This document shows, one piece after another, positions 34,897 to 59,912 of a stretch of 64,000 nucleotides of DNA; within the stretch, counting starts at the first letter, position 1, and each line of letters begins with the position of its first letter. Where the stretch lies: contig CP151667.1 of the NCBI GenBank assembly GCA_038400315.1, positions 682,001 to 746,000 of the forward strand, written 5' to 3'. Source of the DNA: Isosphaeraceae bacterium EP7 (GTDB lineage Bacteria > Planctomycetota > Planctomycetia > Isosphaerales > Isosphaeraceae). The notes beneath the pieces are model-generated. The model had not been told where the DNA came from. It saw nothing but the letters and a program-made list of their open reading frames with translations, and did not search any database. The position numbers were made by a program, and so were the translations under genes.

Positions 34897-34967
34897 CTGC
34901 ATCTCGCATTCGGTCGCCGTATCCAGGTCACGGTAAGAACGGCCTGGTCGCCACTCTCAACCTTCCG
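34897..34967 (+). repeat. 71-bp dispersed repeat, copy A
   Basis: Matches 39983-40053 at 65 of 71 positions in the same orientation. It is followed directly by an AGAATGTCCCCTTTCC motif like those clustered at 38.3-42.7 kb, indicating that both belong to one repeat family. Confidence 0.85.
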
Positions 34968-39773: not shown

Positions 39774-39806
39774 TCGAGGACGAAACGCTCACCCGCTGGA
39801 TATTGC

Positions 39807-39841
39807 AAAGGGGGCATTCTAAAAAGTAGAATGCCCCCTTT
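39807..39841. repeat. Perfect palindrome of the AATGCCCCC family
   Basis: A perfect 15-bp stem (AAAGGGGGCATTCTA / TAGAATGCCCCCTTT) with loop AAAAG, 33 bp after the DUF417 stop. It may act as a terminator for that gene, but its sequence also matches the dispersed AGAATGTCCCCTTT motifs, so it is probably a REP-type element. Confidence 0.8.
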
Positions 39842-39935
39842 GGCCTCCCCCTGTCCCCTTTGCCTCCCCCTAAATTGTAGAATGTCCACTTTGCCCAGAC
39901 TCATGACTCACCGCGTCCGCACCCCGAAGTATTGC

Positions 39936-39982: not shown

Positions 39983-40053
39983 CTGCATCTCGCCTTCGGT
40001 CGCCGTATCCAGGTCACGGTAAGAACAGTCTGGATGCCACTCTCAATCTTCCG
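39983..40053 (+). repeat. 71-bp dispersed repeat, copy B
   Basis: Same orientation as copy A (34897-34967), 65 of 71 identical. It lies between the two copies of repeat X. Confidence 0.85.
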
Positions 40054-40076: not shown

Positions 40077-40113
40077 ATGGTTCGATTCAGAATATGAAAT
40101 GCAGAATGTCCCC
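40077..40113 (+). repeat. Local repeat X, copy 2
   Basis: Matches copy 1 at 39936 (AATATGAAATGCAGAATGTCCC core). It continues directly into the pyrimidine-rich minisatellite. Confidence 0.75.
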
Positions 40114-40130
40114 TTCTCCCCTTTTCCCCT

Positions 40131-40262
40131 CCTGTCCCCTTTTCCCCTCCTGTCCCCTTTCGGCCCTCCTGTCCCCTTTCGGCCCTCCTGTCCCCTTTCG
40201 GCCCTCCTGTCCCCTTTCGGCCCTCCTGTCCCCTTTCGGCCCTCCTGTCCCCTTTCGGCCCT
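40131..40262 (+). repeat. 19-bp tandem repeat upstream of TIR-like gene
   Basis: One 18-bp variant unit followed by six exact copies of CCTGTCCCCTTTCGGCCCT, ending 17 bp before the ATG of the TIR-like gene. The unit includes the TGTCCCCTTT core of the nearby dispersed motif, so it probably grew by slippage from that motif. Confidence 0.95.
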
Positions 40263-40279: not shown

Positions 40280-41107
40280 ATGAAGCACACCATGTTCGTC
40301 GGTTCGTCGGTCGAAGGAATTGAGTTGGCTCGAGCTGTTCAATCCGAACTAGCATATGACCTAGATGTTACCTTGTGGAACCAGGATACTTTCGCGCCTA
40401 GCAACAACACGCTAGAGAGTCTGCTCATCTCAGCAAAGCAGTTCGATTTTGGATTATTTGTCTTTTCAGCCGACGACGTTGCGACCATACGTAAAAAGAG
40501 ACACATGGTAGCGAGGGACAACGTTCTCTTCGAATGTGGTTTGTTTTTCGGAGTACTTGGAAGGGATCGCAGCTTCTTCCTCGTTCCTCAAGGCCTCAAA
40601 AACTTCCACATCCCGAGCGATTTGTGGGGGATCACTCCCGCGACTTACACCCCCAACAGTCATGGGGGCAACTTGAGAGCGGCAGTTGGGCCGGCCTGCA
40701 CTCAGATTAGGAATGCCATCAGGAGTCTGGTTGGACAGAACGAGTCATCCCACTCATTGACGGGGTCTTGGACACAGTGCTGGCATTACGAAGGAGGCAC
40801 TTATGCGAACCGAAATGAATCGCGTGTAGAAGTGCGTCAGATCGGAAGCAAAGTTTCTGCAGTCTTCCAAGCGAAGCCGCCTAATGGAGATCGCGCCACG
40901 AATTACTCGATCGAGGGCACAATCGATCACGGTCGCTATGTCACGGGCGTTTGGGGTGATCCGAAGCGTGGCCCCACTTATTATGGATCTTTTCAGTTAT
41001 ACATACACCCCGAGGGCGATTCGATGACTGGTCGATGGGTCGGCTTTCGAGCCAACAATGAAATTTATGGCAATGTTTGGGAGTGGGCTCGCTTACCGAG
41101 CAAATAG
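40280..41107 (+). CDS. TIR-like nucleotide-binding protein with C-terminal beta-rich domain
   Basis: A 275-residue protein. Residues 1-150 match the TIR-like CAP12/Pycsar-type domain (PF10137): MFVGSSVEGIELARAVQSEL, VTLWNQDTFAPSNNTLESLL, FDFGLFVFSADD and RDNVLFECGLFFGVLGRDRSFFLVP, with Glu85 in the conserved RDNVxFExGLF position. Residues 155-275 form an unrecognised beta-rich domain with LTGSWTQCW and MTGRWVGF (lipocalin-like G-x-W pattern), perhaps a sensor. TIR domains of this class cleave NAD or bind nucleotide in antiphage systems. The gene is visibly AT-richer than its surroundings. The ATG at 40280 starts right after the minisatellite. A paired cyclase is not visible, so the trigger is unknown. 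Confidence 0.85.
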   Translation: MKHTMFVGSSVEGIELARAVQSELAYDLDVTLWNQDTFAPSNNTLESLLISAKQFDFGLFVFSADDVATIRKKRHMVARDNVLFECGLFFGVLGRDRSFFLVPQGLKNFHIPSDLWGITPATYTPNSHGGNLRAAVGPACTQIRNAIRSLVGQNESSHSLTGSWTQCWHYEGGTYANRNESRVEVRQIGSKVSAVFQAKPPNGDRATNYSIEGTIDHGRYVTGVWGDPKRGPTYYGSFQLYIHPEGDSMTGRWVGFRANNEIYGNVWEWARLPSK

Positions 41108-41441
41108 CTTAGATCTCTCTTGCCGGCATCAACACGACCTCCACCCTCCGAGAGCGGCGGTAGCGGGGGACCGGCTGACTACCGGCCTCCGCCCTCCGGT
41201 TAAGCCTCGCTCGGCACGACCACTCAGGCCCGCGATGCGGCCCTCCATCCGGGGAGAGGTTTGGGTGACTGGAGAGCGATCCGGGCTAATCAGCCGCTGA
41301 ACAGGGTTTCCACCCTGGTTGGATGGCAATTTCCGACAAGCGTCAAAGTAGGGGACTGGAAATTAGGCACAGACTAACTGGAAAGGCGTAGCCCCAGCGT
41401 GGTACGATTGCTTAATCTGGAGTTTTCTTGGAGAGCAGCGA
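41108..41441. other. Intergenic region between TIR-like and SIR2-like genes
   Basis: About 330 bp. The first 200 are GC-rich and host-like, with no readable gene; the last 100 are AT-richer and probably carry the promoter of the next gene. The composition break suggests that the two flanking genes were not a compact operon. Confidence 0.5.
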
Positions 41442-42479
41442 ATGGCAGTTATCGTCGACGACAGCTTAGAAAATTATGCCGACGTTCTTGATCGCTTTAA
41501 GGACAAGAGACCAGCTCTGCTACTGGGGAATGGCGCAAGTCGCGCAGTTTGGGATGATTTCAAATATCCCTCATTGTTCGATAAGGCTTGCGACGCTAAT
41601 CGCCCATTCTGCTTGAGCGAAGACGACATTGATGTCTTTCGAGAGCTTGATGACACGCATAACTTCGAGCTGGTTCTTTCTTCCTTGATGACTTCGAAGA
41701 GAATAAACGAAATCTTCAGAATGCCGACAGTCGAAATAACAAATAGCTATTACAACATTCGCCAGGCCTTATTCTCAGCCGTTGGCGAAATTCATGTTCC
41801 GTACGCACTGATAAAGCCCAAAACAAAACGGGCCATCAAAGCAGAGCTATCAAATTACAGGACAATTTTTACGACAAATTATGATCTTCTAGCCTATTGG
41901 AGTTACATGGAAGAATCTTCTCCGTTTAAAGATTTTTTTTGGGGCGATGACAATATTTTCGACCCCGGCAACACTTCGCTTTGGGATGACAAGACAACAA
42001 TTCTCTATTTGCACGGTGCGCTACACCTGTATAAAGAAAAAGGCGGTCATACAAGAAAGCATGTAACCGAGGAGGACGGTGACTCGTTGCTGGAATTGAT
42101 TCGCAAAAGCGACCAGATCCCCTTGTTTGTCAGCGAAGGGCACTGGAAGGACAAAAGAGCAGCAATCCTTGCGAATGACTACCTAGCGTTTGCTTATAGG
42201 ACCTTCTCCCAAAACCGCATCAACCTCGTTGTGTTCGGACAAGCACTGAATCAAGAATTCGATAAACACATCGTCGATTCCATCCATAAAATGCGTGGCT
42301 GGAACAATTTAGCTTCCGCTGCTTTTGAGATAGCGATCTCAATATTCCCTGAAGACTCTTATGATGTGATTGAAATAAAGCGGCGGCTTCTCAAAGCGTT
42401 CCCGAATAAGACCTTGTATTTTTATGACAGCAGAACCCATCCGCTCGGCAATTCCGCACTTCGCGTGGGGAGGAGCTAA
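41442..42479 (+). CDS. DUF4917/SIR2-like protein
   Basis: A 345-residue soluble protein resembling DUF4917, a SIR2-related Rossmann family: LLLGNGASRAVWDDF at about 27-40 (nucleotide-binding G-N-G), IFTTNYDLLAYW near 144-155 and ILYLHGALHLYKEKGG near 187-202, followed by LVVFGQALNQEFDKHIVDSI. SIR2-like proteins of defence systems deplete NAD+ on infection; DUF4917 members occur next to such genes, but their activity is not proven. Codon use is strongly AT-rich (many AAT, AAA, TTT codons), unlike the host genes, which indicates recent transfer. It may act with the TIR-like gene 334 bp upstream. Confidence 0.8.
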   Translation: MAVIVDDSLENYADVLDRFKDKRPALLLGNGASRAVWDDFKYPSLFDKACDANRPFCLSEDDIDVFRELDDTHNFELVLSSLMTSKRINEIFRMPTVEITNSYYNIRQALFSAVGEIHVPYALIKPKTKRAIKAELSNYRTIFTTNYDLLAYWSYMEESSPFKDFFWGDDNIFDPGNTSLWDDKTTILYLHGALHLYKEKGGHTRKHVTEEDGDSLLELIRKSDQIPLFVSEGHWKDKRAAILANDYLAFAYRTFSQNRINLVVFGQALNQEFDKHIVDSIHKMRGWNNLASAAFEIAISIFPEDSYDVIEIKRRLLKAFPNKTLYFYDSRTHPLGNSALRVGRS

Positions 42480-42846
42480 CGACCAGAGGCCGTAAAGGGG
42501 ACATTCTGCATTTCAGAATTCCCCATCCGATCGAGAAGCTGTCCCTGAGCGACAAACCTTCATTCTGGCCTTTTGCCCATCTCATTCATTGTCCTAGTCT
42601 ACGACACGACTGCACTCACAGTGCTTTGAGCAAGCCCGCTAACGGGCGGATCGTGGACTGTTTGCTTCGGGATAATGGAATTATTTCCCATTTTGTCCAT
42701 TTTTCAGATGCAGAACGTCCCTCTTAGGGGATATTCTCTAAAAAGGTCCAAAACTCGCGCAACGCCGCGCGGGCCGGCCCGCTTCGCCGACGTCGGCGAA
42801 ACTCTCGCACAACTCGGATTCCGCACCCAGGAAGCGACGCAGCACC
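42480..42846. other. Repeat-bearing region after SIR2-like gene
   Basis: About 370 bp with an imperfect hairpin (42497-42524), a second degenerate copy of the motif near 42710-42737 and, from 42770, the GACGTCGGCGAAA / AAGCGACGCAGCACC leader of the following HGLAG paralog. No gene is seen. Confidence 0.6.
42497..42524 (-). repeat. AATGTCCCC-family hairpin, right flank of AT-rich insert
   Basis: GGGGACATTCTG pairs with CAGAATTCCCC with one bulge. Its conserved arm is in opposite orientation to the AGAATGTCCCC copy at 40103, so the TIR/SIR2 pair lies between inverted copies. Confidence 0.6.
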
Positions 42847-44109
42847 ATGGGCAAGCTCGAAGTCAGCCAGAGGCGCATCGACGCCAATCGCCGCAACGCC
42901 ATGCGCAGCACCGGGCCGAAGACCGAGGAGGGGAAGGCCCAGTCTCGCCGCAATAGCCTGATTCATGGGCTGGCCGGCAATGGGGTGGTCGTTCCCGAGA
43001 ACGAGGCGCAGGCGGCTCGCGAGCTGGGCGAGCAACTGGTTTCGTCGCTGCGGCCGATGAATGCGTTCGAGATGGGGCTGGTCGAGACGATCGCGATTGA
43101 AGGGGTGCGGATCGATCGGTGTCGGATCGAGGAGCGGCTGGTGCGGGATGTTCGGGCTCGCAGGGCCGGGGCTTGCTGGCGGGATGAGCGGAAGGCCGAG
43201 GCGGCGAAGTTGGGGAAGACTCTGGCGGGTTGTCCCGATGAGGTGGCGTCGCGGTTGTCGACGACCTCGGCGGGCTGTGAATGGCTGGGGGTTCGCTGGC
43301 GGGCGTTGGGGAAAGTGCTGGAGAAGAAGGGGTTCTGGACGGATGAGCAGAAATCGCTGGCCCTGGATCTGATGGGGGTCTCGGCCGAGGTTCGGGAGAT
43401 GGACAGCCCGCTCGATGCTCCCGAGGGGATCGATGCGGCGATCTATCTTCGTGAGCTTGTCGAGTCTGAGTTGGAGAGTCTGTCGATGCGTCAGGAGGAG
43501 TCGCTGGACGCGATTGATGATGACCTGCGCGAGGCGACTTCGCTTGGATTGATCGCCGTGGATGACCCGACGCTGGTGCTGCTGCGGCGGTACGAGACGG
43601 CCAGTTTCAGGCGTCAGCGTTGGGCGCTGGACATGCTACGCAAGGGACGCCAGAAGCCCGCGCCCGCTCCGGTGATGACCCACGACTATGTCGAGCGGCC
43701 CCGCCCCGATTTCTCGGTCTGGGGTGCCCCGGATCCGGTTCCTTACAGCGATGATCCCTCGCCGCGCCCCGATCCCGAGACACCCTCGCCCGGCCCCGGT
43801 CGGACTCAACCCGGGACCGACCAGGCCCAGCCCGCCGGGGTCGCCCGGCCTGCCACTCGCCAGCCATCCGCCCCGCCTCCTCGGGGTGGTCGGATCACTG
43901 GGGCCTGCTCGGGGCGATTCGCGGAACGAAGCCATCTGAATGGCCTTTTCCGCCGTTTGGCCAGGTCGATGGCGGGCCTGAATGTGAGGATCGCGCCCGC
44001 CGCAACGCCGCTCGTCAGGCCCGATCGACGCCTTTCACGGCCCTCGATGGTGGCGATTCGGCCGGGCCGCCCGGAAATACTCCGCGTTGTCGATGCCCCG
44101 GCCGCCTGA
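42847..44109 (+). CDS. HGLAG-type hypothetical protein, paralog 2
   Basis: A 420-residue paralog of the gene at 10235. The head reads SQRRIDANRRNAMRSTGPKT, EGKAQSRRNSLIHGLAG, followed by LRPMNAFEMGLVETIAIEGVRIDRCRIEERLVRD; the LVLLRRYETASFRRQRWALDML block is also shared. The Pro-rich C-terminal part is longer and diverged, but both end with an AERSH...GLN-RI segment. The shared 5' leader shows that the duplicated unit included upstream DNA. Function is unknown; multi-copy occurrence suggests either a mobile or a repeatedly duplicated gene. No transposase motif is present. Confidence 0.8.
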   Translation: MGKLEVSQRRIDANRRNAMRSTGPKTEEGKAQSRRNSLIHGLAGNGVVVPENEAQAARELGEQLVSSLRPMNAFEMGLVETIAIEGVRIDRCRIEERLVRDVRARRAGACWRDERKAEAAKLGKTLAGCPDEVASRLSTTSAGCEWLGVRWRALGKVLEKKGFWTDEQKSLALDLMGVSAEVREMDSPLDAPEGIDAAIYLRELVESELESLSMRQEESLDAIDDDLREATSLGLIAVDDPTLVLLRRYETASFRRQRWALDMLRKGRQKPAPAPVMTHDYVERPRPDFSVWGAPDPVPYSDDPSPRPDPETPSPGPGRTQPGTDQAQPAGVARPATRQPSAPPPRGGRITGACSGRFAERSHLNGLFRRLARSMAGLNVRIAPAATPLVRPDRRLSRPSMVAIRPGRPEILRVVDAPAA

Positions 44110-59321: not shown

Positions 59322-59912
59322 ATGAATCCTCGGCTCGGAAGCTTGGTTGTGTCGCTCCTGATGGCCTCGCCGGTCGTCGCGGGCGAGATGGATTCGGAAT
59401 TCACCGCGAGACCGGCTCGCACAACGCTCGCAATGGCATTCGCGCCGCAACTGCCGCGATCGATTGCCGTCGGGGCGACCGAGATGGATGCCGAGGGCCC
59501 CGCGCAGGCCTGGAGCCGTGGCGGTTTTGGTCGCGGCGGATTCGGCGGAGGGTTCGGTCGCGTCGGCTGGGGTGGTGGCGGATGGGGCGGCGGCTGGAAC
59601 CGAGGTTGGGGCGGCGGCTGGGGTGGCGGCGGTTGGAATCGAGGCTGGGGCGGTGGCTGGAATCGAGGTTGGGGCGGTTGGGGCGGCGGCTGGGGTGGCG
59701 GTTGGGGCGGCGGCTGGGGTGGCGGCTGGGGTGGCGGTTGGAACAGCGGTTGGGGTGGCGGTTGGAATAGCGGATTTGGCCTTGGGTTCAACAGCTTTGG
59801 TTATGGGGGCCTGGGCTACGGCGGTTTTGGTGGGCTCGGGTTTGCGTACTCGCCGGTGAGCTACGTCGTGTACTCGCCCTTCTCCAGCTTCGGCTATGGC
59901 CTCTGCTACTGA
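59322..59912 (+). CDS. Secreted Gly/Trp-repeat protein
   Basis: A 196-residue exported protein: signal peptide (SLVVSLLMASPVVAG), a short linker, then from about 65 to 160 an almost pure Gly/Trp/Asn/Arg repeat (units like GGWNRGWGGGW), and a C-terminal GFGLGFNSFGYGGLGYGGFGGLGF and Tyr-rich end. An AGG-type site (GGGAGG) lies before the ATG. Such low-complexity Gly/aromatic proteins often form surface or structural material, but no family is assigned. The DNA repeat unit makes length variation by slippage likely. Confidence 0.8.
   Translation: MNPRLGSLVVSLLMASPVVAGEMDSEFTARPARTTLAMAFAPQLPRSIAVGATEMDAEGPAQAWSRGGFGRGGFGGGFGRVGWGGGGWGGGWNRGWGGGWGGGGWNRGWGGGWNRGWGGWGGGWGGGWGGGWGGGWGGGWNSGWGGGWNSGFGLGFNSFGYGGLGYGGFGGLGFAYSPVSYVVYSPFSSFGYGLCY

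What the first reader, a model, noticed from the sequence alone, without database searches (positions are those of the whole stretch)
40280..42479. TIR-like plus SIR2-like pair on AT-rich insert: candidate defence module
Seen: a TIR-like domain (RDNVLFECGLFFG) fused to an unknown beta-rich domain, and 334 bp later a DUF4917/SIR2-like protein, both with AT-rich codon use. Known: TIR and SIR2 domains deplete NAD+ in antiphage systems. Inference: the two form or derive from a defence island. No nucleotide cyclase or sensor gene is visible nearby, so this could be a minimal or partial system.
Basis: partly seen in the sequence, partly recalled or inferred. Interest (0 to 1): 0.7.

Follow-up and report, generated by a model that had tools for sequence, protein, structure and literature searches.

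The report
TIR effector with uncatalogued barrel sensor
Two bacterial genes that probably destroy the cell's NAD+ to stop viruses sit side by side here by chance rather than as a fixed pair, and one of them carries a small barrel-shaped domain that no protein family library names and that also turns up on a different suspected antiviral enzyme and on gene regulators.

Summary
40280-41107 encodes a CAP12/Pycsar-type TIR domain (PF10137, E 1e-27) with the NADase residues of TIR-STING, fused to a C-terminal domain that no Pfam model names. After a 334-bp gap, 41442-42479 encodes DUF4917 (PF16263, E 3e-44; PADLOC candidate PDC-S21), whose model is a SIR2 fold closest to antiphage SIR2-HerA.

The spacer is GC-rich and the genes differ in composition. 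They look like two independent candidate defence genes on a foreign patch bounded by a perfect 21-bp inverted repeat.

The unexpected part is the TIR gene's C-terminus. The same domain is fused to a DS8-like phosphoesterase in another planctomycete and to XRE DNA-binding domains in actinobacteria. Its model (pLDDT 85) is an eight-stranded barrel. Its best natural match is the Cap15 cyclic-dinucleotide receptor (Z 13.9), tied with another barrel; sequence support is sub-threshold. I read it as a sensor gating a TIR NADase. The ligand is unknown: no SMODS cyclase was found in the genome, and sister TIRs carry unrelated C-termini.

The parts
40280..41107 (+). TIR-barrel gene, 275 aa, start ATG 40280 (a longer frame from 40034 runs through the tandem repeat and is less likely)
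   Evidence: alignment to solved Cap12 begins at residue 2
40292..40648 (+). TIR domain, residues 5-123, PF10137 CAP12/Pycsar TIR; R79, N81, E85, D114 at the positions of TIR-STING active-site residues
   Evidence: active-site residues from passages of PMC9402430
40739..41104 (+). C-terminal 'GxW' eight-stranded beta-barrel, residues 154-275, no Pfam family; putative sensor
41108..41441 (.). 334-bp spacer, 60% GC, no terminator-like or Rfam match inside
41442..42479 (+). DUF4917 / PDC-S21 SIR2-fold protein, 345 aa; GNGxS (29-33), N146, D148, H191, D274, H276 conserved
40095..40115 (+). left arm of a perfect 21-bp inverted repeat bracketing both genes
42495..42515 (-). right arm of the perfect 21-bp inverted repeat
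40127..40262 (.). 19-bp tandem repeat, 7.2 copies, directly upstream of the TIR start
39983..40053 (.). left-flank repeat, 92% identical copy at window 34897-34967

Best explanation
Two independently acquired candidate antiphage genes lie next to each other. The first encodes a TIR NADase of the CAP12/Pycsar class whose C-terminal eight-stranded barrel acts as the sensor: when it binds its trigger (a small molecule, perhaps nucleotide-like, or a phage-made ligand), the protein oligomerises, adjacent TIR domains complete each other's active site, NAD+ is cleaved and the infected cell stops supporting the phage. The second encodes a stand-alone SIR2-fold NADase (DUF4917) that works without the TIR. 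Shown: TIR and SIR2 assignment, conserved catalytic residues, barrel fold by prediction, the barrel shared with a DS8-like phosphoesterase and XRE regulators, no conserved pairing in the loci examined. Inferred: NADase activity, that the barrel is the sensor, oligomerisation, defence. Unknown: the trigger.
For: PF10137 E 1.1e-27; closest solved relatives are Cap12 (E 2e-23) and PycTIR (4e-18), aligned through the catalytic glutamate. TIR-STING is activated by filament formation that brings D110 of one TIR into the other's active site (passages of PMC9402430 and PMC12421889); E85, R79, N81 and D114 are present here. Barrel: one domain on three outputs: TIR (window), phosphoesterase G432 (PF00149 6.5e-11; NCBIfam DS8 2.8e-25 over residues 9-337, below its full-length cut-off; PADLOC PDC-S60 1.9e-23) and XRE proteins. 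Model pLDDT 85.4, eight strands. DUF4917: model pLDDT 89.8; top Foldseek matches are E. coli SIR2-HerA chains (E 2.6e-11), VIA Z 17.5 to SIR2/HerA; N146 and H191 invariant over 42 sequences. Independence: 0 of 64 and 0 of 26. A DUF4917 gene in a Vibrio plasmid sits among DUF3265 genes near an Hhe antiphage gene.
Against: No activity, toxicity or phage data exist for these proteins. The two genes lie on one strand 334 bp apart inside one inverted repeat, which would also fit co-acquisition. The barrel alignment used for folding was the window sequence plus 32 actinobacterial XRE proteins at 24-31% identity, and the five models ranged from 66.6 to 85.4 pLDDT. Closest TIR sisters carry quite different C-termini: no Pfam match in most, cNMP-binding in some; repeats or short winged-helix-like tails by eye. 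So the C-terminus might be an oligomerisation or phage-protein-binding part rather than a ligand sensor.
Confidence: 0.6

Rival explanations
1. The pair is a true two-gene system: TIR makes an NAD-derived signal that activates the SIR2 protein, as in Thoeris.
For: Same strand, 334 bp apart, both foreign-looking, inside one 21-bp inverted repeat. TIR signalling to a SIR2-SLOG effector is established for Thoeris (abstract of PMC11204291 in the listing).
Against: No other locus examined has the pair: 0 of 64 DUF4917 loci and 0 of 26 TIR loci. The DUF4917 protein is 345 aa and its Pfam scan shows no SLOG domain. The TIR is of the Cap12/PycTIR class. GC-rich spacer, different GC of the two genes.
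Confidence: 0.1
2. The barrel is a Cap15-type cyclic (di)nucleotide receptor, so this is a CBASS-like effector whose nucleotide comes from elsewhere in the genome.
For: Cap15 is the best natural fold match (Foldseek E 1e-4; VIA Z 13.9, rmsd 2.3, 101 aligned, 17% identity); a viral SMODS-2TM-beta protein is also in the viral list (rank 12, E 0.019). A global hhalign alignment spans the whole barrel colinearly, probability 35.6%. The TIR class is known with nucleotide sensors (STING, cNMP-binding). PADLOC also matches the phosphoesterase half of the G432 fusion to a CBASS effector model (4.9e-16).
Against: Fold tie with a quinohaemoprotein amine dehydrogenase domain (Z 13.5), avidins about 12. 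Sequence link is weak: hhalign probability 6.6-12.4% locally, 35.6% globally before and 11.6% after trimming gapped columns; block-shuffled controls reached the real score in 5 of 150 (local) and 1 of 150 (global); hmmsearch finds nothing either way at E 5; PF18153 not matched. No SMODS gene in G000 or G432.
Confidence: 0.25
3. Decayed or silent horizontally acquired genes without a function in this host.
For: Foreign composition, repeat-rich flanks, tandem repeat upstream, no promoter-like site directly before the TIR (4 found in the 3.2-kb region, 1.9 expected, none just upstream).
Against: Both reading frames are intact and the catalytic residues are conserved. The scan covers sigma-70-type sites only.
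Confidence: 0.1

Closest known systems
Cap12 (bacterial TIR-STING, CBASS)
   Same: N-terminal PF10137 TIR with the same active-site residues, C-terminal regulatory domain
   Different: C-terminal domain is a beta-barrel, not STING; NCBIfam Cap12 score 127 against a cut-off of 450; no SMODS CD-NTase in the genome
PycTIR (Pycsar effector)
   Same: same TIR family
   Different: no cNMP-binding domain; TIR is N-terminal here
Cap15 / S-2TM-beta CBASS effector (PF18153)
   Same: predicted eight-stranded barrel, best natural structural match; shared GxW start, a strand ending in Q and an H/Y-G motif by eye
   Different: output is TIR, not two transmembrane helices; Pfam model not matched; S and Y-x-N positions conserved in Cap15 are absent
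DUF4917 / PADLOC PDC-S21
   Same: second gene is a full member (E 3e-44 and 7e-96)
   Different: nothing evident; ordinary member
SIR2 of SIR2-HerA (Nezha)
   Same: fold and NAD-site motifs of DUF4917
   Different: I saw no HerA-like gene beside it, though neighbours were not all scanned; about 16% sequence identity

Membership tests
CAP12/Pycsar TIR (PF10137) | Pfam gathering score | tested here: met
   96.9 bits against 24.7
CAP12/Pycsar TIR (PF10137) | TIR-STING NADase residues (S10, R78, N80, E84, D110 in SfSTING) | tested here: met
   R79, N81, E85 and D114 present at the matching positions of the alignment; S9/S10 in the first loop (residues from passages of PMC9402430)
CBASS effector Cap12 | C-terminal STING domain | tested here: not met
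   only the TIR matches Pfam; NCBIfam Cap12 models match residues 1-128 only
CBASS effector Cap12 | CD-NTase partner | tested here: not met
   no PF18144 match in the own genome at E 0.001; the control rang in 3 of 14 genomes
Pycsar PycTIR | cNMP-binding domain | tested here: not met
   no PF00027 match, while a family relative, L132, has it at 9.7e-12
Pycsar PycTIR | pyrimidine cyclase partner | not tested
   no genome-wide cyclase search was made beyond PF18144
Cap15 / S-2TM-beta (PF18153) | Pfam cut-off | tested here: not met
   no match; own genome without match
Cap15 / S-2TM-beta (PF18153) | eight-stranded nucleotide-binding barrel | tested here: inconclusive
   Z 13.9 to 7n34 but tied with an unrelated barrel, and sequence support below threshold
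Cap15 / S-2TM-beta (PF18153) | two N-terminal transmembrane helices | tested here: not met
   the N-terminus is the TIR domain; no separate transmembrane prediction was run
DUF4917 / PDC-S21 | family profile | tested here: met
   PF16263 152 bits against 28; PDC-S21 7.2e-96
SIR2-type NADase | SIR2 fold with conserved N and H of the active site | tested here: met
   Foldseek E 2.6e-11, VIA Z 17.5; N146, H191 invariant in 42 sequences
SIR2-type NADase | NAD+ hydrolysis | not testable with these tools
   needs an assay
Conserved TIR-DUF4917 two-gene system | genes adjacent in other genomes | tested here: not met
   0 of 64 and 0 of 26 loci; 23 of the 64 loci are under 9 kb, the shortest 3.8 kb, and most TIR loci reach only 1.5 kb each side

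The most novel reading that the evidence does not exclude
The GxW barrel is an undescribed nucleotide-sensing domain, a soluble cousin of the Cap15 receptor, that bacteria plug onto different outputs: a TIR NADase here, a DS8-like phosphoesterase in another planctomycete, and XRE transcription factors across Streptomyces and Micromonospora. That would add a third sensor type to CAP12-class TIR effectors besides STING and the cNMP-binding domain, and would make the actinobacterial XRE proteins ligand-gated regulators of unknown signal.
Probability: 0.25. Interest if true: 0.75.

Novelty: new variant of a known kind. Interest (0 to 1): 0.5.

Why it matters
CAP12-class TIR effectors are known with STING or cNMP-binding sensors. 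A barrel on the same TIR, and the same barrel on a DS8-like phosphoesterase and on actinobacterial regulators, points to a reusable sensor that the Pfam and NCBIfam libraries searched here do not name. It gives a 120-residue soluble domain that can be purified and screened against nucleotides directly, and it predicts that a widespread group of Streptomyces/Micromonospora XRE regulators responds to a small ligand.

Tried and rejected
Module hypothesis: rejected on adjacency. An earlier, weaker check with single-sequence phmmer gave the same answer but would have missed distant TIRs, so it was repeated with profiles.

Weak barrel hits dropped by inspection: G339 (the matched frame overlaps a long frame that I read as YidC), G430 (a frame that I read as ribosomal protein L6) and G264 (a secreted-looking protein with GxW repeats, E 0.003). 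So 2 of 392 phylum genomes hold the barrel with confidence, the own genome included.

Searches with nothing: TIR protein and TIR part in viral contigs, TIR-barrel in phages, the G432 barrel in plasmids, the Cap15 query in viral contigs, the barrel profile against PDB sequences (best E 0.66, Cap15 not among four hits), Rfam. In the VIA lists a family not shown is not excluded. Avidin control: only one sequence was used (a second was found and not used), so the avidin comparison is thin; single Cap15 sequences scored 11.7-17.7 against 13.6 for the avidin, which does not separate them.

Neighbour clustering of 83 XRE-barrel loci gave no constant partner; a methyltransferase-like frame recurs in 21 other loci, and most top clusters were overlapping frames of the same gene. 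The genome-contig scan used patterns from only three sequences, so other architectures may be missed. Extracting TIR frames took the wrong strand for several loci and was redone.

Literature: no paper describing this fusion was found; DUF4917 appears in one held paper (listing only). The library lacks most subscription journals, and the main Cap15 paper (DOI from recall) was not held.

Full report
What is there. The window is G000:C1:682001-746000 of a 7.2-Mb genome. At 40280-41107 (+) lies a 275-residue protein with a CAP12/Pycsar TIR domain at residues 5-123 (PF10137, 96.9 bits against a cut-off of 24.7, E 1.1e-27). PADLOC names it a TIR effector or PycTIR and NCBIfam's Cap12 models match its first 128 residues but stay far below their full-length cut-offs. 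Its nearest solved relatives are Cap12 (9lmq, E 1.9e-23) and PycTIR (8jsj, E 4.3e-18), aligned over the TIR only. R79, N81 and E85 fall on the RDNVxFE motif and D114 on the PsDLxG loop, matching R78, N80, E84 and D110 that form the SfSTING active site (passages of PMC9402430).

The second gene. At 41442-42479 (+), 334 bp on, lies a 345-residue DUF4917 protein (PF16263, E 3e-44), the PADLOC candidate PDC-S21 (E 7.2e-96). Over 42 sequences GNGxS, N146-Y-D148, H191-G192, G266 and H276 are invariant or nearly so. Its model (pLDDT 89.8) matches E. coli SIR2-HerA chains first (Foldseek E 2.6e-11; VIA Z 17.5, rmsd 4.4, 286 aligned to the SIR2/HerA antiphage complex), then KomC, DSR2 and ThsA.

The pair is not a conserved unit in what I could examine. 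DUF4917 occurs in 8 of 392 phylum genomes, own genome included. I examined the seven others, two plasmid loci and 55 viral-contig loci. A TIR profile built from 22 family members hit none of the 64; the same profile hit 26 of 27 TIR loci, most of which had gone into building it. Conversely a DUF4917 profile hit only the own locus among those 27. Loci vary in length (3.8 to 13 kb for DUF4917; most TIR loci reach 1.5 kb either side), so distant pairing is not excluded. The spacer is 60% GC and the two genes differ (51% and 45%), against third-position GC of 77-88% in five neighbours and 56% and 51% here. DUF4917 travels with other defence genes instead: inside an Hma operon (L128, its closest relative in that set), inside a type III R-M operon (L123), near type I R-M genes (L124) and next to a type II methylase (L129). 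These come from nine ORFs of four loci chosen by eye; the other three of seven loci showed no defence gene that I recognised by eye, and no background rate was measured.

The C-terminal domain of the TIR protein is the new element. No Pfam model matches it. Searched alone it was found in 3 of 392 phylum genomes at E 0.001: the own one, G432 (E 5.8e-14) and a chance frame in G339. A ten-sequence profile gave the own genome, G432 (E 8e-41) and two weak hits dropped on inspection, 4 of 392 at E 0.01. In G432 the domain ends a 482-residue protein whose N-terminal part is a calcineurin-like phosphoesterase (PF00149, E 6.5e-11), best matched in NCBIfam by the DS8 antiphage protein (E 2.8e-25, residues 9-337, below the full-length cut-off) and in PADLOC by PDC-S60 and a CBASS endonuclease effector. 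A plasmid search found it on a Streptomyces XRE regulator (E 3e-3). A scan of 84,980 species genomes with a three-sequence alignment returned 74 loci, all titled as actinobacteria, and a viral-contig scan 9; nearly all read as XRE-type proteins of about 250 residues with the domain at the C-terminus, though in some the automatic start was wrong or the N-terminus short. Thirteen columns are invariant in the ten-sequence set, among them GxW, a strand with Q, TGxW, G-x-x-Q and GxWxGF.

Its fold. From the window sequence plus 32 actinobacterial relatives AlphaFold2 gives eight strands and no helix beyond a short turn (pLDDT 85.4, pTM 0.77; other models down to 66.6). Foldseek ranks a designed barrel first and the Yersinia Cap15 cyclic-dinucleotide receptor second (E 1e-4). 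VIA gives Cap15 Z 13.9 (rmsd 2.3, 101 residues, 17% identity), a quinohaemoprotein amine dehydrogenase domain 13.5 and avidins about 12, so Cap15 leads the natural structures but is tied. In the viral library nothing passes E 0.001; a SMODS-2TM-beta protein is rank 12.

Testing the Cap15 link by sequence. I built a 12-sequence Cap15 alignment, one from G083 and 11 from plasmids; of the 11 short plasmid stretches three touch an annotated nucleotidyltransferase, one a diadenylate cyclase and seven neither. hhalign aligns the two profiles colinearly over 115 columns but with probability 6.6%. A deeper barrel profile against the Cap15 barrel gives 12.4% locally (score 24.4; 200 column shuffles mean 12.2, maximum 23.3) and 35.6% globally. 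With gap-rich columns removed and a stricter null that keeps strand-length blocks, 5 of 150 shuffles reach the local score and 1 of 150 the global score, and the global probability falls to 11.6%. hmmsearch does not connect the families at E 5. I rate common descent with Cap15 as suggestive, not shown.

Mechanism. In TIR-STING a ligand-driven filament brings neighbouring TIRs together and completes the NADase site (passages of PMC9402430, PMC12421889). The same TIR class here keeps those residues, so the simplest reading is that the barrel takes STING's place as the trigger-sensing part. Passages of PMC11229360 and PMC12657218 state that the Cap15/OptE barrel binds cyclic nucleotides; passages of PMC12657230 say the same of its 2TM-beta protein. 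Against a CBASS role: no SMODS gene in G000 or G432, and the closest TIR sisters carry unrelated C-termini. In the same family of genomes L130 has no Pfam match after the TIR (I read it as receiver-like, by eye) and L132 has a cNMP-binding domain. Plasmid sisters have a weak DUF5919 match or, by eye, repeats (Leptospira), winged-helix-like tails (Spartinivicinus, Vibrio) and a helical tail (Desulfosarcina). This TIR subfamily thus looks like an output module joined to many sensors, and its sensors need not all read nucleotides.

Mobility. A perfect 21-bp inverted repeat brackets both genes at 40095-40115 and 42495-42515. Its 18-bp core occurs exactly only at these two places in the genome, with two further sites at two mismatches and none for the reversed control. 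The shorter AAGGGGACATTC occurs 12 times against 0 for the control; a few of the 12 lie inside what look like genes. The left flank has a 92% copy at window 34897-34967, and DNA just right of the element (42677-42850) recurs in whole or part at about 20 places. I recognised no transposase in the element and did not test for target duplication, so acquisition is inferred from composition and repeats.

Verdict. They are not a conserved module. DUF4917 is an ordinary member of a known candidate family. The TIR gene is a new variant of CAP12-class effector with an uncatalogued barrel that deserves a binding screen.

Noticed in passing
window 42847-44109 and 42677-42850: A 420-aa frame without Pfam match whose start and upstream region recur in whole or part at about 20 places in the own genome (mostly 71-85% identity over 55 bases or more), a multi-copy family.
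   Followed up: partly
window 39806-39842; G000:C1:2332620 and 2334134; G000:C1:4238813: GGGGACATTC motifs occur as hairpins or as inverted pairs (one pair about 1.5 kb apart with longer matching arms), like a dispersed palindromic repeat; the cargo of the other pair was not examined.
   Followed up: partly
window 40127-40262: 7.2 near-perfect copies of a 19-bp repeat end just before the TIR start codon.
   Followed up: no
L032-L114: A widespread actinobacterial XRE regulator group shares the barrel; a methyltransferase-like neighbour recurs in 21 other loci, like the annotated neighbour in the Streptomyces xanthophaeus plasmid.
   Followed up: partly
L130:6107-7889: In a genome of the same family a PF10137 TIR with a receiver-like C-terminus (by eye, no Pfam match) overlaps a second gene of 299 aa without Pfam match: a possible two-gene TIR system.
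   Followed up: partly
L193 (G083): A genome of the same phylum carries a Cap15 protein (PF18153) but no SMODS match, so its cyclase may be of another type.
   Followed up: no
window 59574-59773: Tandem repeat array of a 36-bp G-rich unit.
   Followed up: no
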